Source: a virus. Taken from it: a stretch of 20,174 nucleotides of DNA. Position numbers and translations under genes: made by a program. The stretch spans positions 1 through 20,174 of IMG/VR virus record IMGVR_UViG_3300042691_002005; one strand, given 5' to 3'. Positions 1 to 20,174 of this stretch are shown here, one piece after another. The notes under the pieces are model-generated. The model made no database searches and had not been told where the DNA came from. It worked only from the letters and a program-made list of their open reading frames with translations. Positions within the stretch are counted from its first letter, which is position 1, and the number at the start of each line of letters is the position of its first letter.

Positions 1-184
1 ATGGTGATACATCATAGTAAGTAGCCGCAGCATTACTTGACGGAATCAGTTTACTTAAAATATACTGAGGAGCAGTAGGTGCTGATCCTGTTCCATTCCA
101 TATCCTTAATTCAATCTTTGTTTCTACTTGCCCTGCTTCGTTTATTGTTACGATATATGGGCTTCTTGCAAATATGTTAGCCAT
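1..184 (-). CDS. Phage structural protein, N-terminal fragment (partial at window edge)
   Basis: An open frame starts at ATG 184-182 and runs off the left edge, giving 61 residues that begin MANIFARSPYIV. The start overlaps the end of the gp10-like gene by 8 nt, which supports it. The fragment is rich in Thr, Ser and Pro, with short beta-strand-like stretches and no transmembrane segment. From memory, proteins with a similar opening occur in tail regions of flavobacterial phages, so a tail or virion role is likely, but this rests on recollection and position only. The C-terminus is missing. Confidence 0.7.
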   Translation of the reverse strand, partial: MANIFARSPYIVTINEAGQVETKIELRIWNGTGSAPTAPQYILSKLIPSSNAAATYYDVSP

Positions 185-722
185 TTTTCTTAATTATGTG
201 GTCTATTTGTTCGTTAAATAATTGCTCTGCATCTAATGCAAAAGATTTGATCAACTCATCCGGTAAATTCTTATAAGCTGCTTCAAATGGCTTTGTAAAA
301 AACATACTGGGCCTAATTCCTTTGTTATATATTCCTCTTGTAATTAGAAAAGCGGTTGATTCATAGCTCAAATACTTTCCAGTCTTTTTATCTGAAAACT
401 GAAATCTTTTTTGCTTTACCCATTTCTTAATTCCTTCAGTTAATCCACCTTGCTTACCTTTTCCGGATCCAAATTTATAAGGGCTATTAGGTGCTTTTGC
501 TGAGCTTGTTTTACCCTTGACACCTTGATCTTGATAAACACCGTAATCAGCCATACTAAACTCCAAAGAAAAAGAGTTCTGCATTGCCTTTACATCTCCT
601 TTAATTGAGTTGTATAAATTCTTAGATACGTTTTTATTATTGTTAGTTAAGTTTCTTCTTGAAACACTAACAACGTGGTTTCTAAATCTTTCTAATGCCT
701 TTTGTACTTCCGTCTTTTTCAT
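177..722 (-). CDS. HK97 gp10-like tail completion protein
   Basis: This 181-residue protein begins with a basic amphipathic helix (about 1-50) and then a beta-rich part with YGVYQDQGVKGK at about 60-71. A Tyr-Gly-x-Tyr-x-x-x-Gly motif of this type is typical of HK97 gp10-like head-tail connector/tail completion proteins, where the conserved Gly precedes a Lys/Ser/Gly-rich loop, here about 72-95. Length is slightly above the usual 110-160 residues. Its ATG overlaps the stop of the upstream gene as TAATG, so the two are probably translationally coupled. The assignment rests on the motif and on position downstream of the terminase; it is moderately secure. Confidence 0.6.
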   Translation of the reverse strand: MKKTEVQKALERFRNHVVSVSRRNLTNNNKNVSKNLYNSIKGDVKAMQNSFSLEFSMADYGVYQDQGVKGKTSSAKAPNSPYKFGSGKGKQGGLTEGIKKWVKQKRFQFSDKKTGKYLSYESTAFLITRGIYNKGIRPSMFFTKPFEAAYKNLPDELIKSFALDAEQLFNEQIDHIIKKNG

Positions 723-1174
723 TAACAGATAGTCATTTCATTAGGAACAACAATATCAAAAGTCATAGCCCAACCTGCCAGATTGTTCTCAAAACGCTCT
801 GAGAATGGCTCTAAAGTGGCTGTATCTTCAATTACAACCTTAGCATCCCATAAGCTACCTGCTTTCATTAGCTTGTACGCTCTGATCAGTACCGAATGCA
901 TTGCGTTTAGTGCATCTGTTTCGTTATCCATACCATAAAACAAATCAGTATCCTGTGCTTTGCTTAGATCAACTATATCCATTGCCATAATAGTTATGTT
1001 GTAACGTATTACGAACTCCTCAGCAGTTGAGTTGTTGATCATAATATGAACCAACGGAAAGATAGTTTTCTTGTTTAAGTCAATAGAAAATATATCTCCT
1101 TGCGTTATTTCGTTAACTACTGGATCAGAAGCAAAGTGCGCTCTTAAGGTATCTATGGTTGTAAAGTAATTCAT
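722..1174 (-). CDS. Putative tail terminator/connector protein of unknown family
   Basis: This is a 150-residue soluble protein without signal peptide or membrane segment. It has an N-terminal helix, a central alternating beta region (about 40-65, ending in NITIMAMDIVDLS), a helical segment (about 85-105), and a C-terminal beta hairpin. The size, the mixed alpha/beta pattern and the position directly before a gp10-like gene resemble tail terminator or tail completion proteins of siphoviruses. I see no diagnostic motif, so the role is an inference from context. Its ATG lies 2 nt downstream of the stop codon of the 252-residue gene. Confidence 0.55.
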   Translation of the reverse strand: MNYFTTIDTLRAHFASDPVVNEITQGDIFSIDLNKKTIFPLVHIMINNSTAEEFVIRYNITIMAMDIVDLSKAQDTDLFYGMDNETDALNAMHSVLIRAYKLMKAGSLWDAKVVIEDTATLEPFSERFENNLAGWAMTFDIVVPNEMTIC

Positions 1175-1178
1175 CGTC

Positions 1179-1937
1179 TTAATCTATCAAGTTGTCTTTG
1201 TTCAATTTCGTTTTTTTTCTTTTCAAACGTGAGAAACGTGAGGCATTTAGTAAGTCTGAGCTTGGCAACCTCATCGAACTTTGTAACATCTCCTTTAGCG
1301 AGTGCATATAAGCTTTGATACCATCCCCATCGTTTGGCAAATTGAGTTGTTTCTGAAAAGTCTTCAATAGTTCCGGATTCTTCTTGATCTCCTTCTCCAA
1401 ATAATTCAGGGTAGCCGGCAATAATTCGTTTCCTAAATTCCAAAAAAAAAGCGATGCTGCAATACAAACATCCAGCGGGGCAAACTTCATAAGCTCTTCC
1501 ATTTCTGGGCTTGGATTATACTCAGCAATCTGATATTTTTCTCCGTGTTTTTTTGTGATCGGTCTGTAAAGTTTAGCCATCGCCCTGTGAAACGTTGACC
1601 AACTGCTCAAAGTGCTTTCTAAATCTACGTACTCAGCAAAGCTAATTTCCTCAAGTTCTGGAATAAAACCAAACTCCATATCCTTAATTTTAAACGTAGG
1701 CTTAAATTTAGGCTTTACATCAAATAAAGTAATGAAATGAGCAACCAACTCCTGTAAAGACGTTAGTTTGATTTTTACAATATCCTTTAGCTGAATATCG
1801 CAAAAGATCTCAATCATCTTCTGGGCCACAAATTCTTCATCATTGGATTTTTCCTGCATATCAATATAAGCTTGGTAACGCTTTAACGTTATTTCACTTA
1901 GATCAGTAGGTACATTTATTTTTAAATCCATACTCAT
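1179..1937 (-). CDS. Hypothetical phage protein, possibly tail-assembly related
   Basis: A 252-residue acidic, mostly helical protein with a strongly basic C-terminus (about 230-245, rich in Arg and Lys). It opens MSMDLKINVPTDLSEITLKR, has a beta-rich section around 80-105, and carries a hydrophobic helix near 150-165 that is too polar at its borders to be a clear membrane segment. I do not recognise the family. In flavobacterial phages, proteins of this size beside small tail genes sometimes act like tail assembly chaperones; that is only a possibility. Two ATGs at 1937 and 1931 could both serve as start. The gene sits 5 nt after the stop of a 55-residue gene. Confidence 0.6.
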   Translation of the reverse strand: MSMDLKINVPTDLSEITLKRYQAYIDMQEKSNDEEFVAQKMIEIFCDIQLKDIVKIKLTSLQELVAHFITLFDVKPKFKPTFKIKDMEFGFIPELEEISFAEYVDLESTLSSWSTFHRAMAKLYRPITKKHGEKYQIAEYNPSPEMEELMKFAPLDVCIAASLFFWNLGNELLPATLNYLEKEIKKNPELLKTFQKQLNLPNDGDGIKAYMHSLKEMLQSSMRLPSSDLLNASRFSRLKRKKTKLNKDNLID

Positions 1938-1942
1938 ATAAC

Positions 1943-2110
1943 TTATTTTTTAGTTTGTTGTTGCACGTAGTTATACGCTTCACGTAGCATTATTAAGTGA
2001 ACTCGCAACTTCTGAGGGTTATTAAAGATTATTTGTATCCGTTTTCCTGTACGGTGTTGTATGTAAGCCTCGACTACATAGCACATTGCTCTTGTGTAAT
2101 CTTCAGCCAT
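1943..2110 (-). CDS. Small helical protein, 55 aa, unknown
   Basis: The gap between the large terminase gene and the 252-residue gene holds an open frame of 55 codons, starting MAEDYTRAMCYVVEAY and ending in a Gln/Lys-rich tail. The start ATG overlaps the terminase stop as TAATG and its TAA stop lies 5 nt before the next gene, so it fits the operon exactly. The protein is predicted helical and basic, with no membrane segment or cysteine motif. Position after the terminase is where many phages carry the portal gene, but this protein is far too small for that. Function unknown. Confidence 0.65.
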   Translation of the reverse strand: MAEDYTRAMCYVVEAYIQHRTGKRIQIIFNNPQKLRVHLIMLREAYNYVQQQTKK

Positions 2111-3270
2111 TAGCGAATATTATAAGTACCGTAGTTTTTCTTTAGGCCTAACGTTTCCATTTCGTGATATCTCAAAGCATCAATGGCGTGATCCAATCCA
2201 CCGGCTGGGTTTCTGCCTCTATTGCCTGACCTGTCAACATCCCAGCAGTAAGCTCTAAGTTCTTTGATTAGGTTTGTACTTTGTTTGGTTACTAAATACT
2301 CCTGTTGTTGCATTACATCAATACCGTAGTTAATTGAATCTTTGCCTTTGGTTACTCCTTTAATCGTCTTTCCGTAGCGTTTAATTTCATCAATACTTTT
2401 CGGTTCTGAACTATCAGCATAAATAACTACGCCAGACGGTAGTGCTTTGGCAATATCTGAGTTAAGCATTCCATTCCGGTAAATTAATTCGTTTACTATT
2501 CGCTTTCCGTTCCAATTATAAACCTCAATGATTGCAGTTGGATCATTGGTATATCCAAAGTCAAGTCCTATTCCAACCAAACGTGCATCTTGTGGCAATT
2601 TATCAATTTCTTTCCAGTTCTCGAATATTACCCCCTCAAGCATACCAACCTCTCCTAATCCATATACTCGCCACCAATTGGCCCAGTATGAACTCGTAGC
2701 TGCTTTGTCACGGTTCTTTTCTATTTGTGTGACAATACTCTGATCAAGTGCTTCGTTGTCTTTGTAGGTAAGGATGATGAAATCTGCATCTGGTTCGTCT
2801 TTTAGTTCCTTGTGAACCCAAAACTCATTGGCAGGGTTAAAGTCAAGGTAAATATCTTTTTTAGTACGGATAGACAGCTCATTGTAACTTTCAAACGTTA
2901 CGTTATTACACTCGTTGATATACAGGATGTCACGTCTTGCTCCTCTTAACTTAGATGAATCGTCAGCACTAAAAAATTCAATTACTGATCCGTTTCTAAA
3001 TTCGTATCTTAAAAGTGATTTGTTAAACTGTGAATCTATGTAACGATTCGTCCACTTCATAATTTTCAAGAAATCTTTTAATGCACCGCGACGCAAATGT
3101 GGTATTGATTCTGCAACTACTGAGATCTCTAAGTTATCTGATCTGATTGCTTTATCTATCAGAATTGGTAATATACCGAATGTCTTTCCTGCAGATGTAC
3201 CTCCCTGAATGATCTTAATTCGTTTTTTTAACGCTAGAATCTTATTTATTGAAGTAGTCCGTTTGAACAT
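2110..3270 (-). CDS. terL: Terminase large subunit
   Basis: This 386-residue protein is the packaging motor ATPase and nuclease that loads phage DNA into proheads. The ATPase part shows a Walker A motif GGTSAGKT at 23-30, a Walker B segment DILYINE with catalytic Glu120, and a motif-III-like LDFNPAN at 142-148. The nuclease part shows acidic residues expected of the RNase-H-like fold: Asp237 in GLDFGY, Asp286 in IYADSS, and Asp360/Asp364 in GGLDHAIDA. The length is typical of short terminases related to the SPP1/PBSX group. It is preceded by a small-terminase-like gene and an 81-residue gene that overlaps it by 29 nt. Confidence 0.95.
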   Translation of the reverse strand: MFKRTTSINKILALKKRIKIIQGGTSAGKTFGILPILIDKAIRSDNLEISVVAESIPHLRRGALKDFLKIMKWTNRYIDSQFNKSLLRYEFRNGSVIEFFSADDSSKLRGARRDILYINECNNVTFESYNELSIRTKKDIYLDFNPANEFWVHKELKDEPDADFIILTYKDNEALDQSIVTQIEKNRDKAATSSYWANWWRVYGLGEVGMLEGVIFENWKEIDKLPQDARLVGIGLDFGYTNDPTAIIEVYNWNGKRIVNELIYRNGMLNSDIAKALPSGVVIYADSSEPKSIDEIKRYGKTIKGVTKGKDSINYGIDVMQQQEYLVTKQSTNLIKELRAYCWDVDRSGNRGRNPAGGLDHAIDALRYHEMETLGLKKNYGTYNIR

Positions 3271-3487
3271 TTACTTTTAGTGTTAGGTAAATATATCCAC
3301 TTTTTAAACCTAAATAACCAACAGGTATAAAATCAATTTGATATCCTTTATATGTTTTAATTCCACAATCAAAGTTTGAAGCCGCATAAAAACCAAACTC
3401 TTTATTATTAATTTTAAATGCACTTTGTTTCATCATTGCAGTTAGAATCTTTTTAAAACTTCTTTTTGATGTAGATTTAATCTTCAT
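3242..3487 (-). CDS. Small basic protein between terminase genes, unknown
   Basis: An 81-residue basic protein that opens MKIKSTSKRSFKKILTA and continues as several short beta strands with Tyr and Gly. No cysteine cluster or membrane segment is seen. It overlaps the upstream small-terminase-like gene by 11 nt and the large terminase gene by 29 nt, which shows that it belongs to the packaging operon. I do not recognise the family. A DNA-binding or packaging accessory role would fit the charge and the location, but nothing in the sequence proves it. Confidence 0.6.
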   Translation of the reverse strand: MKIKSTSKRSFKKILTAMMKQSAFKINNKEFGFYAASNFDCGIKTYKGYQIDFIPVGYLGLKSGYIYLTLKVNVQTDYFNK

Positions 3488-3797
3488 TTACATCTGGGAA
3501 TAAAGGTTGTTCTAAAATTGTTTGTTCAATTTGTTGCAAAGGTTGTCCGTAACCTGAATCCATTAATGCTTTGTACGCAGAAACATCTCCCTCACGTGCT
3601 TTTTTAATTAAAGCCAAAGTCATTAAATCTTCTTGGCTCATTGTTTCACTTTCCCCTGTCAATGGGTTCTTAAGCGATTGATTAACTTCTAACCATTTAC
3701 GAGCTATTGTACTTCTGTTCTTACTGCCTTTTGGTCTTCCGTTTTTTGCCGGTTGATATTCTGAACTGAATTTTTTTAGATTGTCTTCTCTTGCCAT
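3477..3797 (-). CDS. Terminase small subunit-like protein (DUF5681 type)
   Basis: A 106-residue protein with an N-terminal basic motif YQPAKNGRPKGSKNRST at about 14-30. This GRPKGSKN signature is typical of DUF5681-type proteins, small DNA-binding proteins commonly encoded directly before phage large terminases. The rest is helical, with an acidic helix at about 50-80 and a Gly-Tyr-Gly-Gln-Pro-Leu turn near 82-87 that is also usual in this group. It probably recognises phage DNA for packaging as the small terminase. Family recognition is good, while the exact role is inferred from position. Confidence 0.75.
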   Translation of the reverse strand: MAREDNLKKFSSEYQPAKNGRPKGSKNRSTIARKWLEVNQSLKNPLTGESETMSQEDLMTLALIKKAREGDVSAYKALMDSGYGQPLQQIEQTILEQPLFPDVNED

Positions 3798-3819
3798 AAT
3801 CTCGTTTTATTCTCGTTAA

Positions 3820-4467
3820 TTAGAGCGGTTGGGTCGGATTCGCACCGCCTACCTTTTCACTGGATTGTGAACTGTTCAACTTATGAACTTCAACCGCTTG
3901 TTTTGGATATGGTTTACTTAAAGAAGTACACAAAGATATCAAAGTTTTATCAAGTGGATATAAATATTTTCTTTTACCGCTTCTTTTTCTTGTTTCGAGT
4001 TTTGATAAAAATTCTTTTGAGTAAGTATTTAACGTTCTATCGTGTCTCCATTTACCTTTATAAAAATAATCTTTTCCACTACTTTCATTTTCTTCTACAA
4101 AATACCAATTGGTTGCTTGATAAATTGTACCGTAGTGATTCTGACCTTTATCTGAATATGAAATTAATAACTTTACCGTAGGGCAGTCTTTTTTAATTAA
4201 TCTCATTGCAATAGACATCGCCTTACTTGTACTTTCTTGCTTCCCATTTAATGCCATCCTAGTTAATTCTAAATACTGACCATAGTTTAAACCATAAGGC
4301 TTACCCATATTTGCAGAAGCCCCTCCTCCAAATAATATAACTCCGCACCATTCTCCTAAATCATTAAACACTGAATATCCAATATATTGAGCAGGAACTA
4401 CTGCGGCATAGTGAAATTTTAAACAAGCGTATTGTACAGCTTTTTTTGATGCCTTTTCTAATTTCAT
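3820..4467 (-). CDS. Mom-like DNA modification protein (GNAT-like fold)
   Basis: This 215-residue protein resembles the Mom family of bacteriophage Mu, whose founding member converts adenines in phage DNA to N6-(methylcarbamoyl)adenine and so blocks many restriction enzymes. Seen here: KFHYAAVVPA at 17-26, the strand-turn GVILFGGGAS at 42-51, YLELTRMAL at 65-73, and ISYSDKGQNHYGTIYQATNW at 102-121, which matches the Ser-Tyr-(Ala/Ser)-Asp...His-x-Gly-x-Ile-Tyr-Gln-Ala core of Mom. ATGA overlap couples it to a ParB-like gene. The last 25 codons coincide with a 75-nt tRNA-like cloverleaf. The chemistry in this phage is inferred. Confidence 0.8.
   Translation of the reverse strand: MKLEKASKKAVQYACLKFHYAAVVPAQYIGYSVFNDLGEWCGVILFGGGASANMGKPYGLNYGQYLELTRMALNGKQESTSKAMSIAMRLIKKDCPTVKLLISYSDKGQNHYGTIYQATNWYFVEENESSGKDYFYKGKWRHDRTLNTYSKEFLSKLETRKRSGKRKYLYPLDKTLISLCTSLSKPYPKQAVEVHKLNSSQSSEKVGGANPTQPL
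3824..3898 (-). ncRNA. tRNA-like cloverleaf element overlapping the end of the Mom-like gene
   Basis: The minus strand can fold as a 75-nt cloverleaf. The outer stem is perfect over 8 bp (AGCGGTTG at 3898-3891 with CAACCGCT at 3831-3824). Inside it lie a D-arm-like hairpin GTTCA/TGAAC (3888-3874), an anticodon-arm-like hairpin TTCAC/GTGAA (3871-3856, 6-nt loop) and a T-arm-like hairpin at 3849-3832 with loop TGCGAAT, one base from the usual TTCGAAT. It is not a normal tRNA: the D loop lacks GG, the anticodon loop has 6 nt, and the T stem carries a bulged A. Function is unknown. Confidence 0.55.
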
Positions 4468-5003
4468 ACTTCACCTGCAGATATAGAATAAAAAGCTCCG
4501 TTATATTTTCTATCAATTAATTCCTGTATATCGTTTTCTGCTTCCTGTAATTGTTCAACAGTTTTAAACGTAATTTTCATAGTTGCAGGTTTATTCTTTT
4601 CTTCTCCTATAAGTTCGTCTAAACTTGGTTCCTCCATAATAACTGGCAGGTCTAAACCCCATTCGTCTAACTTTTCAGTATCCCATTCGTTAGCTAACAT
4701 ATCCCAGTCCCACTCTCCGAAGCCTACGTTATCTTTTACAATAAATTCGTCTTTCTGTTGCTCGGTTAGGTTCTCAGCTTTAACAATATACACTTCTTTC
4801 AATCCAGCTTCTTTACAGGCCTTTAAACGCATATTCCCGCCTAACACAATATTGTTTTCATCCACAACGATAGGTCGTAGCTCTAACATCTGAGGAAACT
4901 CCTGTATTGATTTGACTAACTTACGAAATTTATCGTCTTTTATTAGTCGTGGGTTTTTCGGGTTATTTTTTACCTCGCTTATTTTTACTTTGTTGACTTG
5001 CAT
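4464..5003 (-). CDS. ParB/Srx-fold protein next to Mom-like gene
   Basis: A 179-residue protein whose first 100 residues match the ParB N-terminal domain as found in phages: NNPKNPR at 13-19, the central segment RPIVVDENNIVLGGNMRLKA at 43-62, and FIVKDNVGFGEWDWDML at 87-103. In this family the Gly-Gly-Asn-x-Arg loop forms the nucleotide-binding site; ParB folds act as CTPases, nucleases or DNA-binding adaptors. The C-terminal 60 residues are acidic and helical. It directly precedes the Mom-like gene (ATGA overlap), a pairing that suggests a shared role in modifying or handling phage DNA before packaging. The ATG at 5003 overlaps the 58-residue gene by 41 nt. Confidence 0.8.
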   Translation of the reverse strand: MQVNKVKISEVKNNPKNPRLIKDDKFRKLVKSIQEFPQMLELRPIVVDENNIVLGGNMRLKACKEAGLKEVYIVKAENLTEQQKDEFIVKDNVGFGEWDWDMLANEWDTEKLDEWGLDLPVIMEEPSLDELIGEEKNKPATMKITFKTVEQLQEAENDIQELIDRKYNGAFYSISAGEV

Positions 5004-5139
5004 TTTCTGTTAATTGGTTTCTACAAACTGCTATTCTTTGGTTAATATCTGGAAATTCTTTAACCATTACCGGATCCATTATGCATCGTTGTACAAATTC
5101 TCCGGCCTGTTCTCTTGGTAATAACTTTGGTATTGGCAT
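4963..5139 (-). CDS. Small conserved phage protein, 58 aa
   Basis: Fifty-eight codons start at an ATG overlapping the metallophosphoesterase stop as TAATG and end inside the ParB-like gene. The protein has MPIPKLLPREQAGEFVQRC followed by a KEFPDINQRIAVC segment. A Phe-x-x-Arg-Cys ... Phe-Pro-Asp-x-x-Gln-Arg-x-Ala-Val-Cys pattern recurs in many small phage proteins encoded near head or packaging genes, as far as I recall; their biochemical role is not established to my knowledge. The two cysteines (19 and 39) are the conserved ones. The C-terminus is a basic Gln/Lys tail. Confidence 0.7.
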   Translation of the reverse strand: MPIPKLLPREQAGEFVQRCIMDPVMVKEFPDINQRIAVCRNQLTENASQQSKNKRGKK

Positions 5140-6014
5140 TAGATATTAAATAAGTGGGAATCTACTTTGTTGTAATAACTTTGCACTCCGTCTTTTTGTT
5201 TGCGGATCATCTTAATAGTTAAGATACGCCCGCCGAGTGGCTTTGGTGGTGCTCCCCTTTCAACGTGCCATCCGTGATCTCCATCTCCGTACTCTTCTTT
5301 ATAAGTACCGGTTAGCATCATATGTAAAGGTCTTTGTTCGCTTTTGTATCCGTTTTTAGGGTTGTGTACAATACTTTCTCTGACATCATTACGTGCTGAG
5401 TTCTCGTGAATGTGGCCCATAGTAAACACATCAAAATCCTCGTACATTTCTAAAGCTCTTGTTAAGTTTAAAGCTCCTTTTGTAACTACTCCACCGCCTC
5501 CAGATCCGTGGTAATATTTTACTTTAGTGCTTAAACGAGTGCTGCCATCGTGATTTTTAATGATCAACCAACCTCCGTAACCACCTGTCTGTACATTTGC
5601 TCCAGATCTGTAATTAAGTAGATCAACGAAACGAGTTAAGATATCCGTTTCTTGGTACTTAATAATTCCTGTTTCGTGGTTTCCGTAACCAATTACTGTC
5701 AGAATGTGAGCATACGGTAAAAACCATTCAACCGCAGTTTCAACAATCGAATCTAAATAACGTGCGTTGTTATGTTCTGGTCGGATATCTGACTTGTTGC
5801 GGCGATTATCTCCGCGTCCCTGCATTAAACAAAACGTATCTCCGTTTAAAAATACTTTGATATCGTGCTTTAAACAATAGTCAAGATGCTGTTTTAATAG
5901 CTCGTGATCGCATTTAGGGTTGTCCCAGTGTACATCACTAAGGAAAGCTATTTTAACGTCTTTAGAATCAAAATTTAATTCGTGTACGTTTCTTCCGTGT
6001 TTGATTAGTTTCAT
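5139..6014 (-). CDS. Calcineurin-like metallophosphoesterase
   Basis: This 291-residue protein carries the complete two-metal phosphoesterase signature: FLSDVHW with Asp27/His29, LNGDTF with Asp59, GYGNHE with Asn112/His113, a histidine at 169 in YYHGSGGGG, and MGHIHE with His201/His203. Such enzymes cleave phosphomonoester or phosphodiester bonds, and in phages they are often encoded beside packaging genes, perhaps as nucleases. It is soluble and of usual length. It overlaps the upstream cysteine-protein gene by 4 nt (ATGA) and the following 58-residue gene by 1 nt. The substrate cannot be read from the sequence. Confidence 0.92.
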   Translation of the reverse strand: MKLIKHGRNVHELNFDSKDVKIAFLSDVHWDNPKCDHELLKQHLDYCLKHDIKVFLNGDTFCLMQGRGDNRRNKSDIRPEHNNARYLDSIVETAVEWFLPYAHILTVIGYGNHETGIIKYQETDILTRFVDLLNYRSGANVQTGGYGGWLIIKNHDGSTRLSTKVKYYHGSGGGGVVTKGALNLTRALEMYEDFDVFTMGHIHENSARNDVRESIVHNPKNGYKSEQRPLHMMLTGTYKEEYGDGDHGWHVERGAPPKPLGGRILTIKMIRKQKDGVQSYYNKVDSHLFNI

Positions 6015-6367
6015 CCTTCGTAAGTGGCATAAACTGCCTTAAGGTCATTCATAATCTGTACCCAGCAACTTGAGCAAGTAGTCGGTGATTTTCTTTTGTT
6101 AAATACTCTTTGGTAAATATCCAAGATCTGCTTTTGTTCAGTCGGTGTTAAACTGTACTTATTATTGATATCTAACTCGGTAAGGTAATTGTACTCCTGC
6201 TCAGTTAAACAATTAAAGTACGGAAATCTTTGGTTTAGTTTCTCCTTACGTTCGTTGCATCCGCAATCATCTCCTGCGATAAATTTAACTACTGCTGCAA
6301 TACCGGTTGCTTCTAATACATTTTCAACCGTATCGCCTAATCCTTTTGCTTTCTTTGGTCTTGCCAT
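6011..6367 (-). CDS. Conserved phage protein with cysteine pairs, unknown function
   Basis: A 118-residue protein with a basic start MARPKKAKGLGDTVENVLEA, a short hydrophobic helix (about 20-32), DCGCNERK with Cys35/Cys37, Cys53, and a late CSSCW with Cys98/Cys101. The cysteines could hold one zinc ion. Similar proteins with the GLGDT...DCGC...KEKLN order are, from memory, frequent in flavobacterial phages and prophages just upstream of packaging genes, but no function is known to me. It follows the sigma-like gene after 5 nt and is coupled by ATGA to the metallophosphoesterase. Confidence 0.7.
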   Translation of the reverse strand: MARPKKAKGLGDTVENVLEATGIAAVVKFIAGDDCGCNERKEKLNQRFPYFNCLTEQEYNYLTELDINNKYSLTPTEQKQILDIYQRVFNKRKSPTTCSSCWVQIMNDLKAVYATYEG

Positions 6368-6372
6368 ATCAT

Positions 6373-6912
6373 TTAAATTAATTCATAATCTTGATTCATA
6401 TAATCTTGCCAATCTTCTCCGATGGCTTCGCTTAGTTTCTTTTTACAGTTGTTGATTGTTTGCCATATTGATCGTAAACCTATTCCGACTTCAGTTTCTA
6501 TTTTACGCATACTGAATCCAGAATTTCTGTAAAGGATAAATAATTGTCTGTCGTACTCATCCCAGTTTTGCATTTCTGCTTTTATTTTTAGTTCAATGCG
6601 TTCTAATGCTTCTAATCTTTCCGTGTTTTGCTGCGTTTTAACAACGTTTTGCACGGTTTCATATGGTATTAACTGCATTGATTCTTTTTTGTTGATTGTA
6701 AAGAACATATTGCGAAGCGTTACCCACATCAAAGCTCGGTTTATTTCTCCGTTTTCAAAGTATTTTTCAGGATCTCCAATCTTCATCAACTTAATATAGC
6801 ACTCCTGTACAATATCTTCTGGGTTATCAGTACCGAATAAACGTACAATGGCCACCCATTCTTTATGATGAGCGGCCACTGCTGTTATCCAATTTGTTTT
6901 GTTTAGTTCCAA
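6373..6912 (-). CDS. Sigma-70-like (ECF-type) factor
   Basis: A 179-residue two-domain protein. Residues about 15-75 resemble sigma region 2: DNPEDIVQECYIKLMKIG at 29-46 matches the core-polymerase-binding helix (Asp/Glu-Asp-x-x-Gln-Glu), followed by a region rich in Trp, Arg and aromatic residues. Residues about 117-165 resemble region 4: YDRQLFILYRNSGFSMRKIE, then the helix-turn-helix. A phage sigma factor placed between replication and packaging genes probably redirects host polymerase to late genes; this is inference. The start is taken as TTG at 6912-6910, because a stop codon lies just upstream in frame and no ATG precedes region 2. It overlaps the upstream small gene by 10 nt. Confidence 0.75.
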   Translation of the reverse strand: MELNKTNWITAVAAHHKEWVAIVRLFGTDNPEDIVQECYIKLMKIGDPEKYFENGEINRALMWVTLRNMFFTINKKESMQLIPYETVQNVVKTQQNTERLEALERIELKIKAEMQNWDEYDRQLFILYRNSGFSMRKIETEVGIGLRSIWQTINNCKKKLSEAIGEDWQDYMNQDYELI

Positions 6913-7034
6913 TCTAATTCAAATACAACATTCAAAATCATTAATCCCATTCCGCTGGTTGAAATTAGTAAGCCAAAACCGTAATTATCATCTACGTGAA
7001 CTTTGGCCTTAAACCTTTTAAATATTCGTTTCAT
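6903..7034 (-). CDS. Small membrane protein, 43 aa
   Basis: An open frame of 43 codons fills the space between the zinc-finger gene and the sigma-like gene. It begins MKRIFKRFKAKVHVDDN, a basic cytoplasmic stretch, followed by a hydrophobic segment (about 18-39, GFGLLISTSGMGLMILNVVF) that could span the membrane once. Its start overlaps the upstream gene by 17 nt and its stop overlaps the sigma-like gene by 10 nt, which is typical of this operon. The family is not recognised. Confidence 0.55.
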   Translation of the reverse strand: MKRIFKRFKAKVHVDDNYGFGLLISTSGMGLMILNVVFELDWN

Positions 7035-7431
7035 AAGTCGAAAGTATTTGTTTGTATAATTTTATTCTATCTATTCCTTTATTAATTGTATCTATGCGGT
7101 TATGCCATTTTGCGTAAAGCTCAGTCATTAAACCCATTTGTCGTAAAGCATTAATTGAAAACAAAACCATTTCTTTTCGTTTTTGCATACCGGCAAGTAA
7201 ATGATCAGCATCAGCTATAAAAGCCAATTCGTTGTTATATTCAAGTCCGTAAGTATCTTCTAATTTAAACAACATATTATCCAGATCTACTATCTTTCCT
7301 TTTCCGTTACAATCATCGCATTGCAGCTGAATATGATTCTGAGCATACGGTTCATAGTTTCCGGTTGTTTCTTCATCAATATACCCTCTGCCCTCGCAGC
7401 AAGTACATTCTAAATAGTTAATTGCAATCAT
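7018..7431 (-). CDS. DnaJ-type zinc-finger protein
   Basis: Starting at ATG 7431 the protein has 137 residues. The N-terminus carries two Cys-x-x-Cys-x-Gly-x-Gly half-repeats, Cys9-Cys12-Gly14-Gly16 and Cys38-Cys41-Gly43-Gly45, as in the zinc-binding region of DnaJ; no J-domain is present. The remainder (about 50-137) is helical with several Met and Leu. It may bind nucleic acid or act as a small chaperone. A longer frame opens at 7458, but that ATG lies within the promoter -7 element at 7456-7463 and so cannot be on the transcript from it; 7431 is the better start. Confidence 0.75.
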   Translation of the reverse strand: MIAINYLECTCCEGRGYIDEETTGNYEPYAQNHIQLQCDDCNGKGKIVDLDNMLFKLEDTYGLEYNNELAFIADADHLLAGMQKRKEMVLFSINALRQMGLMTELYAKWHNRIDTINKGIDRIKLYKQILSTYETNI

Positions 7432-11097: not shown

Positions 11098-11481
11098 TTA
11101 AATTTTTTTAGCCAAACTGATATCCAGCATTCCGTAAGTTTTCTCAATACGTTCCGTGTTTTCAAATTCAGTTGTCTTTGGCATCCTGCTATCTGTTTGC
11201 CATTGTGGTTCAATCCAACGTAAATCAAAAACAAATACTCCTTTTGGTGTTGAGTTTATATATAGTGGTATGTTGTTGAATATTGTGTAATGAGCCATAA
11301 GTTCCGTGTACTTATCTATTTCGATCATTAAGCTGGAGTAATGCGTATTTCTTGATTTTAGTTCTATTCGTGTTTTGTACTGATTGCTATAACAATCCCA
11401 CCTGCTATATTGATCATCTGCTCTGATTAGATCCGGAAAATAAGTTTGCTTTAAATAGTCGAATAGTTTAGCTTCATTCAT
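11098..11481 (-). CDS. PD-(D/E)XK-like nuclease, possible Holliday junction resolvase
   Basis: A 127-residue protein with the core SRWDCYSNQYKTRIELKSR (26-44): Asp29 followed by Glu40-Leu-Lys42 matches the Asp-x(n)-Glu-x-Lys pattern of small PD-(D/E)XK nucleases such as resolvases and restriction endonucleases. The remaining sequence gives alternating strands and helices expected for this fold. It is encoded with NinG, ERF and YqaJ proteins, so a recombination function such as junction resolution is likely. I do not recognise the exact family. Its start overlaps the NinG stop as ATGA. Confidence 0.6.
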   Translation of the reverse strand: MNEAKLFDYLKQTYFPDLIRADDQYSRWDCYSNQYKTRIELKSRNTHYSSLMIEIDKYTELMAHYTIFNNIPLYINSTPKGVFVFDLRWIEPQWQTDSRMPKTTEFENTERIEKTYGMLDISLAKKI

Positions 11482-11993
11482 AATTGCTTTATTTTTTCTT
11501 TGTAATGTTTAATTAGATCTCTGAGTTCTTGTTTTTCCCAACGTTTTTCCAAATGCGCTCTGCCTTGTAATTCAATTAATCTTTCAGCTCCTATTCGTTT
11601 TTCAATACCAATTTGATAATTCAAAAGATTGCCAGATAAATACGTATTACAGTGTTCACATTGTAAATGGCAATTATCTTCGTCAAACCTTACGTTTGAG
11701 TGGCCTCCTTGACTAAAATAGTGCCCGCAATTTTCTTTTTTAGCTGGTTTATCGCAGCTTATACAGTTCTTACCTTTATCTCGTAATCTGATATACTTAT
11801 TGAATACTATCTGAGCAGCCTTTAAAACGTCTTGCGTTGTTTCTAAGTTTGACTGCATTTTCTTTTTAGTCTTTTTCCATTCCTTAGCCTTGACTTCTTC
11901 TACAAACGCTTTAATACATTCGTCTTTTAGGCAATACTTGGCATTGAAACGGACAGGCTCGAACTTGTCTTTACAATTTTTACAACGTGGCAT
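11478..11993 (-). CDS. ninG: NinG/Rap-type recombination protein
   Basis: A 171-residue protein with the domain order of NinG. It starts with a zinc-binding part (Cys4, Cys7, Cys21, Cys26), continues with a basic helical linker (about 35-70), then an HNH-like nuclease part: CISC at 77-80, NCGHYFSQGGH at 88-98, and CHLQCEHCN at 108-116. The (C)GH(Y)xS(Q)GxH segment is diagnostic of NinG. In lambda the homologue Rap acts as a structure-specific endonuclease in Red-mediated recombination, cutting branched DNA. The neighbourhood of ERF and an exonuclease agrees with that role. Length is normal. Confidence 0.92.
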   Translation of the reverse strand: MPRCKNCKDKFEPVRFNAKYCLKDECIKAFVEEVKAKEWKKTKKKMQSNLETTQDVLKAAQIVFNKYIRLRDKGKNCISCDKPAKKENCGHYFSQGGHSNVRFDEDNCHLQCEHCNTYLSGNLLNYQIGIEKRIGAERLIELQGRAHLEKRWEKQELRDLIKHYKEKIKQL

Positions 11994-12654
11994 TTTCCTG
12001 GTTTAATATGTATTCGCTCCATTGTTTAGCCATAGCGTTTGCTATTCCGTCAAATGTTTTACTTCTTAGCGTTCGTCTTTGTTCAGGTGTTTTAGCTTGT
12101 TTTAAAGCTTCAAAATACCACTTCGGTTGTTTTTTTAACTTACCATTGTTACCAATAAACTCAATAAATTCACCCTTTCCTACTATGTTTGTAGGTTCTA
12201 AGTTTGGGAGTTTAAACAACCAAAGACACGTACTTTTTTGTGCTTCGTCGCCAAATTGCCACGGCTGAATTATTTGATTAGGCTTTCGTATTTCTGTACT
12301 TATTACACTTATAGGGTTTTCAATAGCTTTATATTTTATAGGCGCATTCATAAGTCGACCAACAAACTCAATAGCTTCTTGTTGGTTATTATATCGTTCT
12401 TGGTTTTTACTTCCGTCTTTATTATATAGCCAACGAGCGCCACTAACTGCCAGGTAAGTGCAAGGCGGGTGCGCTATCATTAAGTCCCAACCTTGATCAA
12501 TTACTTTAAAAACGTCTTCCTGGTAGTGCCATTCAGGGTGGCCACCGCTACAAGGTAATAAGTCACAACTAAAGGCTTCGTGCCCTAATTTTCTAAATGC
12601 TTTTGTTACTGCCTGGCTTTCTTCACAGGCTACTAATACTTTTAATCTTTTCAT
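11980..12654 (-). CDS. Rossmann-fold DNA methylase-like protein
   Basis: A 224-residue protein similar to small phage proteins annotated as cytosine-methylase-like. It starts KRLKVLVACEESQAVTKAFR, which takes the place of the SAM-binding motif I but lacks the normal Gly-x-Gly. It then has CDLLPC at 30-35, DLMIAHPPCTYLAVSGARW at 57-75 with the Pro-Pro-Cys (63-65) of motif IV, and IENPISVIS at 111-119 in place of the Glu-Asn-Val motif. The missing glycines and short C-terminus mean that methyltransferase activity is uncertain. It overlaps NinG by 14 nt. Confidence 0.65.
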   Translation of the reverse strand: MKRLKVLVACEESQAVTKAFRKLGHEAFSCDLLPCSGGHPEWHYQEDVFKVIDQGWDLMIAHPPCTYLAVSGARWLYNKDGSKNQERYNNQQEAIEFVGRLMNAPIKYKAIENPISVISTEIRKPNQIIQPWQFGDEAQKSTCLWLFKLPNLEPTNIVGKGEFIEFIGNNGKLKKQPKWYFEALKQAKTPEQRRTLRSKTFDGIANAMAKQWSEYILNQENATL

Positions 12655-14163: not shown

Positions 14164-14780
14164 CAGTCAATGATTAAAGTAGGTTGATTAAATTTAGGCT
14201 TGTTTCTATCCTGTTGGTTTTTCTTCCAACGTTCTAAACGGAGTTCTAAATTAAAACTCTTTTCCTTTTCAAACCTCATTTTTTTATCTCGTTCTCCGTG
14301 TTCAGTCCAGTAATCGTAAAATTCACGTACCATAACCTTACCGTATGTATCTACAAAAGAACTTAGTTCAGAAGCAAACTTTTGTTTGCGATCAGCTATA
14401 TTATATTCTTTATCTTTATCTTCTTCTTTAATGCTAGAGCCTTGCTTTAGCGATGCTTTAGCCTTGCTTAAGCCACCCTTACGCCCAGATTCACTGAGTT
14501 TCAATCGTTTAGCTTCAATCTCAATTCTTTCAACATCCAAAAAAGAAATTACAATTTTATTTTTTTTAGTTTTTAAATATTGTTTTTCAATCAATGTATC
14601 CACTATTTCTGAATTACGTAAACGCAACTTAGCCTCTTCAATATTTAAGTTATTAGATCTGTTCCAATACTCAGCGCAAACTCGTATAAACGCTCCTTGT
14701 AATTCAAAAGATTCATAGCTAATATTACCGGTAATCCATTCGGTAGCATTAAACTTAAAAAATGGCAGTTCCTTACTCAT
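14163..14780 (-). CDS. Phage replisome organiser-like protein (DUF1376 type)
   Basis: Starting at ATG 14780 the protein has 205 residues. The N-terminal part, ELPFFKFNATEWITGNIS followed by a helical segment with GAFIRVCAEYWNRS, is typical of DUF1376-like winged-helix domains at the front of phage replication proteins. A variable Lys/Ser-rich linker (about 100-130) leads to a C-terminal DnaD-like helical part with FYDYWTEHGERDKKMRFEKEK. Such proteins bind the origin and recruit the helicase encoded next (ATGA overlap). A TTG at 14792 could extend the frame by four codons, but the ATG overlapping the upstream stop is more likely. Confidence 0.75.
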   Translation of the reverse strand: MSKELPFFKFNATEWITGNISYESFELQGAFIRVCAEYWNRSNNLNIEEAKLRLRNSEIVDTLIEKQYLKTKKNKIVISFLDVERIEIEAKRLKLSESGRKGGLSKAKASLKQGSSIKEEDKDKEYNIADRKQKFASELSSFVDTYGKVMVREFYDYWTEHGERDKKMRFEKEKSFNLELRLERWKKNQQDRNKPKFNQPTLIID

Positions 14781-16493: not shown

Positions 16494-16499
16494 GCTCTA

Positions 16500-17087: not shown

Positions 17088-17568
17088 TGATTAATAAATA
17101 ACGTCTAACTGCACGAACTACAAAAAACAAAGCAATAAGTAATAAACTAAAGAAGATCCAGCGCATAGCATCAGCAAAAGTATTTTTGTTTTCACTCTTT
17201 ACTTGCTTTAAATCAGTTTTAAGCGTTGTTTTCTTTGTTTTAAGAGCATATTTAAGCGAATCTGAGTAGATAGTTCGGATATGTTCTAAACTATCGTTAA
17301 AACGCTTTAAATCGAATCTTTGGATTATACGTGTTTTTGGAACGTATTGCTTCTGGATCTGAATAACTGTATCTTTCTGAGTAATGAACTTTTCCCATAC
17401 TATCGAATCACGAACAATAACCGGAAATGAATCAACTGTATTGATTCTGATTGTATCGTATACCGGTGGCTTGTAACCTTTCTTGATCGCTTTATTTAGA
17501 TGGTAGTTCATTGAGCAACCTGTCGCAAGAATAGTAGATATTAGCGACAAAATAAAGATCCTTTTCAT
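17080..17568 (-). CDS. Lipoprotein with C-terminal membrane segment, unimolecular-spanin-like
   Basis: A 162-residue protein with a lipoprotein signal (MKRIFILSLISTILATGC, predicted lipidation at Cys18), a periplasmic part with beta-rich and then Lys-rich helical sections (about 30-130), and a C-terminal membrane segment at about 137-153 (WIFFSLLLIALFFVVRA). A lipobox at one end and a transmembrane helix at the other is the architecture of unimolecular spanins such as T1 gp11, which join and disrupt the outer membrane in the last step of lysis. The position between holin-like and endolysin-like genes supports this. The sequence has no family match that I recognise. Confidence 0.65.
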   Translation of the reverse strand: MKRIFILSLISTILATGCSMNYHLNKAIKKGYKPPVYDTIRINTVDSFPVIVRDSIVWEKFITQKDTVIQIQKQYVPKTRIIQRFDLKRFNDSLEHIRTIYSDSLKYALKTKKTTLKTDLKQVKSENKNTFADAMRWIFFSLLLIALFFVVRAVRRYLLING

Positions 17569-17780
17569 TCCTTAATAGTTTTGTTCCATACTGTTAATCC
17601 AATCGCAGTAGCTGAATAAGTAAGCAGGCCTACAAAAACAAACTCGTGTACTTCAAACGGTCTAAAAAGCGGAATTAAAGCATAAGCAACCGATAGCCAA
17701 AAAGACGTAAAGGCACTTAAGCGTTTAATAGACCACTTGCCATTAGGCTTGAGTGTTTCTGCGATTAGTTTTTTTATCAT
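17565..17780 (-). CDS. Holin-like protein with two membrane segments
   Basis: From ATG 17780 this is a 71-residue protein, MIKKLIAETLKPNGKWSIKR, with two membrane segments (about 21-39 and 46-65) and a short charged tail. This is the normal build of class II holins. The reading frame extends upstream to 17879, but the extra part lies in the preceding gene and lacks hydrophobic character. The Asn-Gly-Lys-(Trp/Phe)-Ser-x-Lys-Arg...Ala-Phe-Thr-Ser-Phe pattern occurs in other flavobacterial phage lysis cassettes, from memory. It overlaps the next gene by ATGA. Confidence 0.65.
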   Translation of the reverse strand: MIKKLIAETLKPNGKWSIKRLSAFTSFWLSVAYALIPLFRPFEVHEFVFVGLLTYSATAIGLTVWNKTIKE

Positions 17781-17970
17781 TAGGTAAGATTGCAAATAAG
17801 CGTTCTGGAATGTTAATTCGTGTATTTGTAGCTTGTCTGAACGTCTGTTCTTTATAGCAGTCATACAAAGCAGTTTCAACCTTATTTAAGCGGTTGTCAG
17901 TATGCCAAAGCCATAAGGCAAGCACTCCAGTTACTCCGTACTTTTTAATGATCGTAACAAACTCGGTCAT
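17743..17970 (-). CDS. Short holin/antiholin-like membrane protein
   Basis: A 75-residue protein with an N-terminal membrane segment (about 9-23, KKYGVTGVLALWLWH), a following amphipathic helix with a Leu-Asn-Lys-Val-Glu motif, and a basic C-terminus. This topology resembles BhlA-type holin-like proteins. The position directly before the two-span holin-like gene suggests a lysis timing role. It overlaps that gene by 38 nt. Confidence 0.55.
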   Translation of the reverse strand: MTEFVTIIKKYGVTGVLALWLWHTDNRLNKVETALYDCYKEQTFRQATNTRINIPERLFAILPNDKKTNRRNTQA

Positions 17971-18323
17971 TCCTCAGTCAATAATTGCGGTTCGTATGGA
18001 AACTCTTCTTTAACACTATGCCCAGCGAAAGCGTGCTTCGGGTTCTTTGGTTCGACAAGGTTTGACCCGAAGTCATAGGTGTTGTCCGACATTACATCGT
18101 AGTGATATCCGTCAGCGTAGATAGGTTCGGTAACTACTTCCATTCCTTCCATTACGGGAGGGGTTAACATAATAAGTCCTATTTCTACAACTGCTTGAAC
18201 ACCTTCGCTGTATGCTTCGTGTTTTTCTCCGTCTATTCCTTCGACCTCGATTAGTATTCCTTTGGCGTAAAGGTCGGCAACTGCTTCGGCCTTGTCTGAA
18301 TAAGTCAATTTAAATATGTTCAT
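17967..18323 (-). CDS. Hypothetical protein between tail and lysis genes, 118 aa
   Basis: A 118-residue acidic protein (MNIFKLTYSDKAEAVADLYA at the start) with an alpha/beta N-terminal part and a C-terminal half rich in Glu, Tyr and Pro that looks extended. No membrane segment or motif. It lies between the tail-tip protein (TAATG overlap) and the lysis genes (ATGA overlap), where many phages carry small tail-fibre-associated proteins. Function is not established. Confidence 0.6.
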   Translation of the reverse strand: MNIFKLTYSDKAEAVADLYAKGILIEVEGIDGEKHEAYSEGVQAVVEIGLIMLTPPVMEGMEVVTEPIYADGYHYDVMSDNTYDFGSNLVEPKNPKHAFAGHSVKEEFPYEPQLLTEE

Positions 18324-20056
18324 TACAAAGTTGTTAAGGTTGCTAATTGAGCGTTAGTAAGGCGAGTTTTCCAAAGGGCTGCGGCTTTAATGTTTATTGT
18401 TTTAGTGGCTGAATTAGTTGTAACAGGGTCATAAAAAACTACTGCCGAAGTCGCTGGAATTGTTGCACTCGTGTCTGTGCCAATTTGAACCCCATTAACG
18501 TAACCCACTACATCATTATTTTTATAGGCTAAAGCTATCTTATATGCCCCGCTTGTTGAAGCACTTGTTGATATTGCTACTTGCGTTGTATTGCTTAATC
18601 TAATAAATAACAAAATAGTCCCAACACCACCACCGTAATGGAAAATACTGATTAAATTATTTGATGTTCCGTCAGTTAAACTTATTAGCGTGTCATCTAA
18701 ACCGCCATTGTTTTTTGCGTTGCTATCATATATCTCATCAACAAACAAAGTCCCCTCTGTTTGCCCTATAAGCGAACTTATACCAGTCTTTGAAATAACA
18801 TCAGCGTTTCGTGTTACACTTTCTGAGGTTGTAGGTATGTAACTTGTACTATAACTTCCGACTTCAATCTGTGCGCCCCAAAAATAACCATATTCAGAAG
18901 TGCTACCTTGATAAGTAGGATTTTTATTTCCACTATCAAAAGTTGGTGTTGCAGAATTACTTAAGCTGTAAATTACATAAGTGTCACCAGCACCAGCAGG
19001 GTTTGTACCACTCAATGTAGCTCGCACCCAACCATTACCAAAATCAGTTATTGTATTACTTACGCTTGTAAGACCATTTGAACTATTTGAAGTAGCGGTT
19101 AAATTGTCTGCATCAAAAACTTGAGTGTAGCTATTTCCACCTATTTGAATTTTAATTGAAAAGAATTGACGAGTACCTTTTTTGTAAAATACACTTGCGG
19201 TTGCAGTTGTAGTTGATGGTGGTGTTATATTGTAAAATAGATGGTTTCCATTTGAGGAATCTTCAGTTACTTTATCAGCGTTTTGAGTTCCATCTGGGCT
19301 TGTCACATTATTAGCCACAATCGTAACTCCACCTTTATCCCACTCAGCGTTATCAAAAGACGAACTATATTTAACAAGGTTTGTCCTTTGCGGTTCTACA
19401 AGTAAACTTGGACAAGTTCCGTTTGAGTAGTCAAGTCTTGGTATGTTAAGTCTTGTTTCCGTTTTTTGGTAGTCTTTAGCGGTTGAGCCCTCGACTGCTT
19501 GCGCAAATGTAAAGTCAATAGCCTGACCACTTGACCAAGTAAAAAACGCACCTAACAGAATAGCTGTAGTGTTTGAATCTGCGACAAATGAATATTGAAA
19601 CTCTTGCCATTGTGTGGTGTAGCTTATGTTATTTTGTGGCGACAAAACAGCTCCGCCGTGATTAAGGTTGATAACACCTGAGGTTGCGCCTTTAATCCAA
19701 ATTGTAACAACATAAGTACTGCCTATGTTAGTAGCAATATCTTGCGTAACTATTCCATTAAACCCAGCAAAAGAAGTCATTCGCACTCCAGTAGTCCCAC
19801 CATTTGGGTCTGTTATTCCAGTTGTTACATTCGATATGTTAATCTTATTCCAAGCTGCGTTGTCGAATTTCTCCGAATAACTAAAGAGGTTATAAGGCAC
19901 TAACTCTACCAAGCCAGCAGAGTTTACTCGTGTTGCGGTGGTCGCTCGTGTTACTGACATATCGCCACTTCCGTCCGACGGAATAATGGAATAAAGTTTG
20001 CCTTCCTTATATCCGTTTGGTGTTACAATTAAAGAGGCAGTATCTAATAGGCTCAT
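18323..20056 (-). CDS. Tail-tip/receptor-binding protein with two repeated modules and LamG-like end
   Basis: A 577-residue, Ser/Thr/Asn-rich beta protein. After a short N-terminal region (VTRATTATRVNSAGLVELVP, then NLFSYSEKFDNAAWNK) come two related binding modules, roughly 55-195 and 225-405, each opening with an Asn-Leu...Tyr-Ser...Phe-Asp-Asn-Ala-x-Trp segment typical of CBM-like/jelly-roll modules. A conserved linker, PRLDYSNGTCPSLLVEPQR, separates them. The C-terminal part (about 430-577) resembles a LamG/concanavalin-like domain (GTLFVDEIYD, GYVNGVQIG). Cell-surface sugar binding is likely. The ATG at 20056 overlaps the previous stop as ATGA and is preferred over an upstream ATG at 20092. 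Confidence 0.8.
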   Translation of the reverse strand: MSLLDTASLIVTPNGYKEGKLYSIIPSDGSGDMSVTRATTATRVNSAGLVELVPYNLFSYSEKFDNAAWNKINISNVTTGITDPNGGTTGVRMTSFAGFNGIVTQDIATNIGSTYVVTIWIKGATSGVINLNHGGAVLSPQNNISYTTQWQEFQYSFVADSNTTAILLGAFFTWSSGQAIDFTFAQAVEGSTAKDYQKTETRLNIPRLDYSNGTCPSLLVEPQRTNLVKYSSSFDNAEWDKGGVTIVANNVTSPDGTQNADKVTEDSSNGNHLFYNITPPSTTTATASVFYKKGTRQFFSIKIQIGGNSYTQVFDADNLTATSNSSNGLTSVSNTITDFGNGWVRATLSGTNPAGAGDTYVIYSLSNSATPTFDSGNKNPTYQGSTSEYGYFWGAQIEVGSYSTSYIPTTSESVTRNADVISKTGISSLIGQTEGTLFVDEIYDSNAKNNGGLDDTLISLTDGTSNNLISIFHYGGGVGTILLFIRLSNTTQVAISTSASTSGAYKIALAYKNNDVVGYVNGVQIGTDTSATIPATSAVVFYDPVTTNSATKTINIKAAALWKTRLTNAQLATLTTL

Positions 20057-20174
20057 ATTTGAGAAAGGTTTAAAATGGTTAAAGACATACAAAAAGACGA
20101 TTCCAAAACTCCACCCTCTGAGGCTACTCTTAACTCAAGTTCAAAAGGTGCATTAAAGGTTGTAGTAGCGTAAT
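20053..20174 (-). CDS. Upstream structural protein, C-terminal end (partial at window edge)
   Basis: An open frame enters from the right edge and ends with TGA overlapping the ATG of the tail-tip gene (ATGA). About 40 residues are visible, containing TTTFNAPFELELRVASEGG. The other two minus-strand frames hit stops quickly, so this is the coding frame. Context suggests a tail or virion protein. The family is not recognisable from the tail end alone. Confidence 0.6.
   Translation of the reverse strand, partial: YATTTFNAPFELELRVASEGGVLESSFCMSLTILNLSQI

What the first reader, a model, noticed from the sequence alone, without database searches (positions are those of the whole stretch)
1..20174. 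The tetranucleotide CATG is completely absent from the window
I read every CAT and ATG in the window: all of the many ATG trinucleotides are preceded by A, T or G, never C (the ATG at position 1 has no visible preceding base). At roughly 35% GC about 60 CATG sites would be expected by composition, yet none is present. CATG is palindromic, so both strands are covered. Other 4-bp palindromes such as GATC, CCGG, GTAC, ACGT, GCGC and CGCG do occur, so this is not general palindrome avoidance. The likely cause is selection against an NlaIII-like (CATG) restriction system in current or past hosts. It also implies that the Mom-like modification does not, or did not, give full protection at this site.
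Basis: partly seen in the sequence, partly recalled or inferred. Interest (0 to 1): 0.8.

Follow-up and report, generated by a model that had tools for sequence, protein, structure and literature searches.

The report
A phage that lacks CATG entirely
This stretch of a bacteria-infecting virus really does contain no CATG, most likely because its hosts carry enzymes that cut DNA at that word; many of its uncultured relatives lack the same word and several other cutting sites, a known kind of viral evasion seen here in a strong and fast-changing form.

Summary
Confirmed and extended. CATG occurs 0 times in 20,174 bases against 37 expected from trinucleotides and 41 from synonymous-codon shuffles; it is the only missing tetramer. 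GATC, CCGG and GGCC are not depleted.

Pooled over 80 related viral contigs, CATG is the most depleted of 256 tetramers (243 seen, about 2,300 expected; zero in 50 of 80). The six most depleted are all palindromes: CATG, CTAG, GATC, GGCC, CGCG, CCGG. The purged set differs between near relatives. At sites where three CATG-tolerant relatives have CATG, avoiders keep about 1% but 48-49% of control palindromes, mostly through one-base changes. This fits selection by type II restriction and argues against mutation bias.

Host and enzyme were not found; Bacteroidota is inferred. Beside the packaging genes is a slot holding different DNA-modification genes in different relatives (Mom here; TAGT, TET or methyltransferases elsewhere). 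Relatives with Mom may purge CATG or keep it, and an apparent TET-tolerance link was not borne out for one TET type and stays open for another. Restriction-site avoidance is a known strategy; this is a strong new instance.

The parts
1..20174 (.). CATG-free stretch, the whole window; contig L002 aligns at 99.97-100% identity over positions 1-3321 and 3358-7059 and is CATG-free too
3234..3237 (.). one of only three CTAG sites left in the window
4259..4262 (.). second remaining CTAG site, inside the Mom-like gene
14434..14437 (.). third remaining CTAG site
3820..4467 (-). Mom-like DNA modification gene (PF25680, 115.3 bits; phrog_1384), in a slot that holds other modification genes in relatives
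4464..5003 (-). ParB_N-domain gene on one side of the slot; in several relatives it is fused to a PF01555 DNA methyltransferase
3477..3797 (-). DUF5681 gene (PF18932) on the other side of the slot; presumed small terminase only from its place next to the large terminase
2110..3270 (-). large terminase (PF04466, PF17288), used as the family marker
11980..12654 (-). protein of PHROG family phrog_757 ('DNA methyltransferase'); no Pfam match; specificity unknown

Best explanation
The phage lacks every CATG site in this stretch, and nearly every CTAG site, because its hosts, now or recently, carry type II restriction enzymes that cut those words. Each site that arises by mutation or recombination lowers survival on entry, so sites are removed, mostly one base at a time and often by synonymous changes. 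Shown here: the absence, its independence of protein sequence, its recurrence across the phage family, its turnover between near relatives, and selective loss at aligned sites. Inferred: that the agent is a restriction enzyme of the NlaIII/FatI specificity, and that the host belongs to the Bacteroidota.
For: 0 CATG against 37-41 under three nulls. CTAG 3 against 36-39 in the same window. Pooled over 80 related records, the six most depleted of 256 tetramers are CATG, CTAG, GATC, GGCC, CGCG and CCGG, all palindromes; CATG 243 observed against about 2,300, zero in 50 of 80 records, O/E <= 0.1 in 61 of 80. Six other palindromes have pooled O/E of 0.71 (TCGA), 0.80 (GTAC), 0.83 (AGCT), 0.86 (TGCA), 0.88 (ACGT) and 0.89 (GCGC). 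Near-identical terminases carry opposite states, e.g. L026 CATG 0/34 and L030 45/86; the tree of 116 terminases needs at least 16 changes for CATG. From CATG-tolerant L030, L034 and L075 to 31, 33 and 31 avoiders, 5 of 333, 2 of 271 and 2 of 180 aligned CATG sites are kept, against 48-49% of control palindromes; tolerant relatives keep 45-67%. From L073, L021, L081 and L055, 0 of 14, 0 of 9, 0 of 24 and 0 of 12 are kept in avoiders. At 14 window positions aligned to CATG in one of six near relatives, 10 differ by one synonymous base. Site purging is an established phage strategy aimed mainly at type II sites (PMC6286503, abstract and Results read).
Against: No host, no CATG-specific endonuclease or methylase, and no host CATG count was obtained; the one genome-contig scan found a single contig binned as Saccharibacteria at 42% identity. 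L281, whose terminase falls in the window's own clade, has CATG 5/11 and CTAG 6/13, so the purge is not fixed even among the nearest relatives. A paper on F. psychrophilum restriction systems has no 'CATG' in its main text (passages), although a phage of that species (FPSV-S2, the best isolate hit, terminase 54%) has CATG 2/131. The window is a fragment; of the rest of this phage only the part in L002 was seen.
Confidence: 0.85

Rival explanations
1. Mutation bias or general composition in the phage or its host removes CATG, with no selection against cutting.
For: CTAG is low in many bacterial genomes for reasons not fully tied to restriction (recalled). Host genomes could not be counted here.
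Against: CATG is about half of expectation in relatives of similar G+C (L030 45/86, L034 30/72, L073 17/32), L030 and L034 having almost the same terminase as avoiders, and normal in the named Bacteroides phage BU183P1 (108/109). Aligned CATG sites are lost far more often than control palindromes.
Confidence: 0.05
2. A CATG-reading host system other than a classical type II restriction enzyme (for example a nuclease outside R-M, or a DNA-binding defence protein) drives the purge.
For: The agent is not identified; only its target word is visible.
Against: The other purged words in the family are also 4-bp palindromes of the type II kind (that all are common type II targets is partly recalled), and published avoidance is largely confined to orthodox type II sites (PMC6286503, Results read).
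Confidence: 0.08
3. The phage itself makes a CATG-specific nuclease, used on host or rival phage DNA, and must lack the site itself.
For: Some phages are known to encode site-specific nucleases (recalled). Many window proteins match no family, so a nuclease could be hidden.
Against: All 42 putative window genes were compared with Pfam and/or PHROGs (40 of 42 with Pfam); the nuclease-like matches were NinG, an exonuclease (phrog_5715), a DNA-repair exonuclease (phrog_7339) and ParB-like families, none a restriction enzyme. Avoidance spans several words and lineages.
Confidence: 0.03
4. Chance, or an assembly or library artefact.
For: None found.
Against: Minimum of 300 Markov simulations is 23 and of 500 codon shuffles 27. 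The same absence recurs in records from different metagenomes.
Confidence: 0.01

Closest known systems
Restriction-site avoidance by prokaryotic viruses (Rusinov et al. 2018, PMC6286503; abstract and Results section read)
   Same: Near-total elimination of short palindromic sites from a dsDNA phage; the paper counts elimination (CB < 0.1) for 7.1% of type II sites in its set.
   Different: Here the host and enzyme are unknown, several words are purged at once in many relatives, and the purged set changes between near-identical relatives.
CATG restriction enzymes (NlaIII, FatI specificity)
   Same: The missing word is their target; FatI = CATG is stated in PMC2722675 (passages read); NlaIII = CATG is recalled.
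   Different: No such enzyme was found here. That FatI and FaeI come from Flavobacterium aquatile, and the CTAG enzyme FspBI from a Flavobacterium, is recalled and comes from no call.
Phages with modified DNA (Mu Mom; TET/TAGT hypermodification; 7-deazaguanine)
   Same: Family members carry Mom, TAGT, TET, methyltransferase or 7-deazaguanine-type genes beside the packaging genes.
   Different: In the coliphages of PMC6286503 a hydroxymethylase goes with less avoidance (2.4% against 55.8% of sites); here modification genes of several kinds coexist with strong avoidance in many records.

Membership tests
Restriction-site avoidance in phages | Short palindrome far below Markov expectation | tested here: met
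   0 against 37.4, z -7.3; simulations
Restriction-site avoidance in phages | Depletion not explained by protein sequence or codon usage | tested here: met
   500 synonymous shuffles: mean 40.6, minimum 27, observed 0
Restriction-site avoidance in phages | Selective loss of the word compared with control palindromes at aligned sites | tested here: met
   about 1% kept against 48-49% for controls in three tolerant-to-avoider comparisons in the family; for the window itself 14 aligned sites, none kept
Restriction-site avoidance in phages | Host carries a restriction enzyme with that specificity | not testable with these tools
Restriction-site avoidance in phages | Host genome does not show the same depletion | not testable with these tools
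   host unknown; seven named Bacteroidota phages vary from 2/131 to 108/109, which says nothing direct about the host
Mom DNA modification family | Sequence match to the curated family model | tested here: met
   window 3820-4467, PF25680 115.3 bits against cut-off 27.1
Mom DNA modification family | Modified adenine in virion DNA | not testable with these tools
   needs virion DNA

The most novel reading that the evidence does not exclude
An uncultured phage family runs two anti-restriction layers at once: a swappable DNA-modification cassette beside the packaging genes, and genome-wide purging of whichever 4-bp palindromes its current hosts cut. The purge is gained and lost faster than the terminase diverges, so the set of missing words would be a readable fingerprint of the restriction enzymes of each phage's hosts, with CATG cutters the most persistent pressure.
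Probability: 0.3. Interest if true: 0.6.

Novelty: new member of a known kind. Interest (0 to 1): 0.42.

Why it matters
Restriction-site avoidance is known, largely from phages compared with named hosts. Here one uncultured family offers many near relatives in opposite states for the same word, so the rate and route of gaining and losing avoidance can be measured directly, and the missing words may tell which restriction enzymes unseen hosts carry.

Tried and rejected
TET as the cause of CATG tolerance: in the first set a TET_JBP gene cluster occurred in 3 of 13 tolerant and 0 of 60 avoiding records, the window included (uncorrected Fisher p 0.0046, the best of many gene clusters). A larger sample did not bear it out for one TET type: of 11 scored family members with the L067-type TET, 7 have CATG O/E <= 0.1, among them L100 and L101 whose TET is 99% identical to L067's. 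With the L055-type TET only 2 of 11 scored are at <= 0.1, but these are few lineages (five rows share one identical terminase), so that part stays open.

Mom as the cause of GATC tolerance in the window: L068 carries a Mom protein 100% identical over residues 1-215 yet has GATC 4/14, CCGG 0/5; L075 with another Mom has GATC 1/80.

Phage-encoded methyltransferase as the cause of CATG tolerance: PF01555, PF00145 and PF02086 were sought in 50 of the 80 records; 9, 8 and 0 had matches. Of the 13 tolerant records 8 were among the 50 (L021, L030, L033, L034, L055, L073, L075, L079); of these only L034 had a match, a weak PF00145 one (33.5 bits). Most records are fragments, so absence is weak evidence.

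Host through plasmids: the NinG protein hit 50 plasmids; the 20 listed are of Pasteurella, Klebsiella, Arsenophonus, Pseudomonas, Escherichia, Shigella and Salmonella; not pursued. Literature on FspBI/CTAG (34 papers, 12 listed) and on Mom with ParB, TET and glycosyltransferase (0 papers) gave nothing usable.

Rows dropped before counts: L001 (a piece of the window) and L082 (42% terminase, Saccharibacteria bin) were left out onward where the family was counted; L008 was counted as its whole record (L083+L084). In the tree, rows with terminase under 70% identity or 95% coverage were left out, and 10 of 116 rows had no CATG state (expected under 7, or O/E between 0.1 and 0.25). In one search records aligned over fewer than 1,500 bases, or with CATG O/E between 0.1 and 0.25, were left out. 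Some records were extended with pieces that overlap slightly, so totals are very slightly high.
Full report
WHAT WAS CHECKED. The window is a 20,174-base virus record. CATG occurs 0 times; the maximal-order Markov expectation is 37.4 and base composition gives 63. It is the only tetramer of 256 with a zero count, and has the lowest z (-7.3). 300 order-2 Markov simulations gave a mean of 37.3 and a minimum of 23. Shuffling synonymous codons among 42 hand-picked genes 500 times gave a mean of 40.6 and a minimum of 27. The coding signature is plain: 0 of 132 internal Met codons are preceded by C though C is 15% of third bases (972 of 6,479), and His before G is written CAC 36 times and CAT never.

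CTAG is almost as depleted: 3 against 36 (Markov) or 38.6 (codon shuffle); CGCG is low (3/14). TCGA is near the Markov expectation (23/28) but below the codon-shuffle one (23 against 49). GATC and CCGG are if anything above expectation (79/62 and 31/27; codon shuffles 78 against 59 and 31 against 17). So the window's fingerprint is CATG and CTAG purged, GATC, CCGG and GGCC tolerated.

THE FAMILY. Pooled, the six most depleted of 256 tetramers are CATG (O/E 0.10), CTAG (0.14), GATC (0.25), GGCC (0.34), CGCG (0.37) and CCGG (0.40), all palindromes; CATG is zero in 50 of 80 records and at O/E <= 0.1 in 61 of 80, with 6 between and 13 at >= 0.25. Six other palindromes lie at 0.71 (TCGA) to 0.89 (GCGC). 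Long records show how far this goes: L028, 31,009 bases counted, has CATG 0/72, CTAG 2/76, GATC 0/99, CCGG 0/15, GGCC 0/7. The window's nearest records L002-L005 share its fingerprint: CATG 0 in all four, CTAG 0 to 2, GATC 31/39, 26/18, 28/22 and 40/32. But L281, found later and placed in the same clade, has CATG 5/11 and CTAG 6/13.

TURNOVER. On a tree of 116 terminases the CATG state (77 avoid, 29 tolerate, 10 unscored) needs at least 16 changes, CTAG 7, GATC 13 (FastTree, 34 of 91 inner branches weakly supported, and these phages exchange modules, so the numbers are a guide). L026 (0/34) and L030 (45/86) lie in one group of near-identical terminases. Aligned-site counts are stronger. From tolerant L030, L034 and L075 to 31, 33 and 31 avoiding records, 5 of 333, 2 of 271 and 2 of 180 CATG sites are kept, while 48-49% of six control palindromes are kept; most CATG sites differ by one base (258, 200 and 161). 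Tolerant-to-tolerant (5 records each), 45%, 46% and 67% of CATG sites are kept against 60-65% of controls. From L073, L021, L081 and L055, 0 of 14, 9, 24 and 12 are kept in avoiders, controls 35-49%. The pairs are not independent, since one source record is compared with many relatives. For the window itself, 14 positions align with CATG in one of six near relatives; 10 of the 14 differ by one synonymous base, and at the other 4 restoring CATG would change the protein.

INTERPRETATION. Specific loss of a palindrome at the DNA level, achieved largely by one-base changes, recurring and reversing between near relatives, is what restriction by host type II enzymes predicts. Mutation bias does not predict opposite states at the same composition. 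The enzyme and the host were not seen. Bacteroidota hosts are inferred from similar isolates: Flavobacterium phages at 54% terminase identity and Nonlabens phages at 41% for the exonuclease (most other hits there are Acinetobacter phages). Among seven named Bacteroidota phages CATG ranges from 2/131 (FPSV-S2, F. psychrophilum), 9/100 (CRP5, Riemerella) and 11/92 (Arctus_1) through 29/66 (lillamy9-2), 53/85 (P12024S) and 72/92 (Danklef_1) to 108/109 (BU183P1). CATG and CTAG enzymes from Flavobacterium species (FatI, FaeI, FspBI) are recalled; only FatI = CATG was read (PMC2722675 passages). Against this, a paper on F. psychrophilum restriction systems names, in the passages I saw, CCGG, CCNGG, GCSGC, GATC and CGCG, and has no 'CATG' in its main text (PMC11837570).

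THE MODIFICATION SLOT. Between a ParB_N gene and a DUF5681 gene, presumed small terminase by position only, the window carries a Mom-like gene (PF25680). The same place in relatives holds TAGT glycosyltransferases (Pfam-tested in L004, L007, L009, L079; others by clustering), TET_JBP (Pfam-tested in L055; L007 and L067 by clustering), a protein with ABC-ATPase and acetyltransferase matches (tested in L003), a ParB-fused PF01555 methyltransferase (Pfam-tested in 11 of the 17 records so classed; three more, three by clustering only), a C5 methyltransferase (L059) or, in L052, QueE-like and GTP-cyclohydrolase genes of the 7-deazaguanine kind. 29 of 80 records have a different gene before the large terminase and no ParB match. 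The slot does not cleanly predict the purged words: records with and without modification genes both purge CATG. Of family members with a Mom gene, 10 of 16 scored, window and L002 included, have CATG O/E <= 0.1. So Mom does not replace purging. The window's ParB-Mom-DUF5681 region is 92% identical over 1,493 bases to that of L068, whose large terminase is only 81% identical, showing that the module moves.

PLACE AMONG KNOWN THINGS. Site avoidance is a known phage strategy; Rusinov et al. (PMC6286503, abstract and Results read) found elimination for 7.1% of type II sites in their set and less avoidance in coliphages with a DNA hydroxymethylase. This case is a new, strong member. What seems less usual is the number of words purged at once and the speed of change. 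Two searches of the held library for a report in flavobacterial phages (terms with GATC, 4 papers; with CATG, 5 papers) listed nothing on avoidance there, judged by titles and starts of abstracts, plus passages of two of them.

LIMITS. The window is a fragment; L002 adds about 3.5 kb beyond its left end, also CATG-free. Short contigs have few expected sites. Host, enzyme, host composition and a baseline over all viral contigs remain to be done.

Noticed in passing
window 3477-5003; L003, L004, L007, L009, L052, L055, L059, L067, L075 and others upstream of the large terminase: Hot spot between a ParB_N gene and a DUF5681 gene holds interchangeable DNA-modification genes: Mom, TAGT, TET, methyltransferases, 7-deazaguanine genes, or nothing.
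   Followed up: partly
window 3553-5042 and L068:1606-3095: The ParB-Mom-DUF5681 module is 92% identical between phages whose large terminases are only 81% identical: recent module exchange.
   Followed up: partly
window, 20174 bases: CCGG and GATC are above the synonymous-shuffle expectation (31 against 17, 78 against 59), and TCGA below it (23 against 49).
   Followed up: no
L052:985-2396: QueE-like radical SAM and GTP cyclohydrolase I genes just before the DUF5681-cluster gene, a 7-deazaguanine-type pathway, in a phage that keeps CATG (12/16) but has CTAG 0/9 and GATC 0/11.
   Followed up: partly
family pool of 80 records: CCAG and CTGG are the next most depleted tetramers after the six palindromes (O/E 0.43 and 0.49), perhaps from CCWGG or CCNGG avoidance.
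   Followed up: no
L324 (Riemerella phage CRP5): ACGT 7/96, GCGC 1/50, GATC 3/109, GGCC 1/64, CATG 9/100: a named phage with many palindromes purged at once.
   Followed up: no
window 11980-12654: phrog_757 'DNA methyltransferase' protein without any Pfam match; tblastn found relatives in only 3 of 81 loci (L017, L028, L045).
   Followed up: no
window 11098-11481: 127-aa protein with no Pfam or PHROGs match; by eye it has an E-x-K stretch of the kind seen in PD-(D/E)xK nucleases; relatives in 3 of 81 loci.
   Followed up: no
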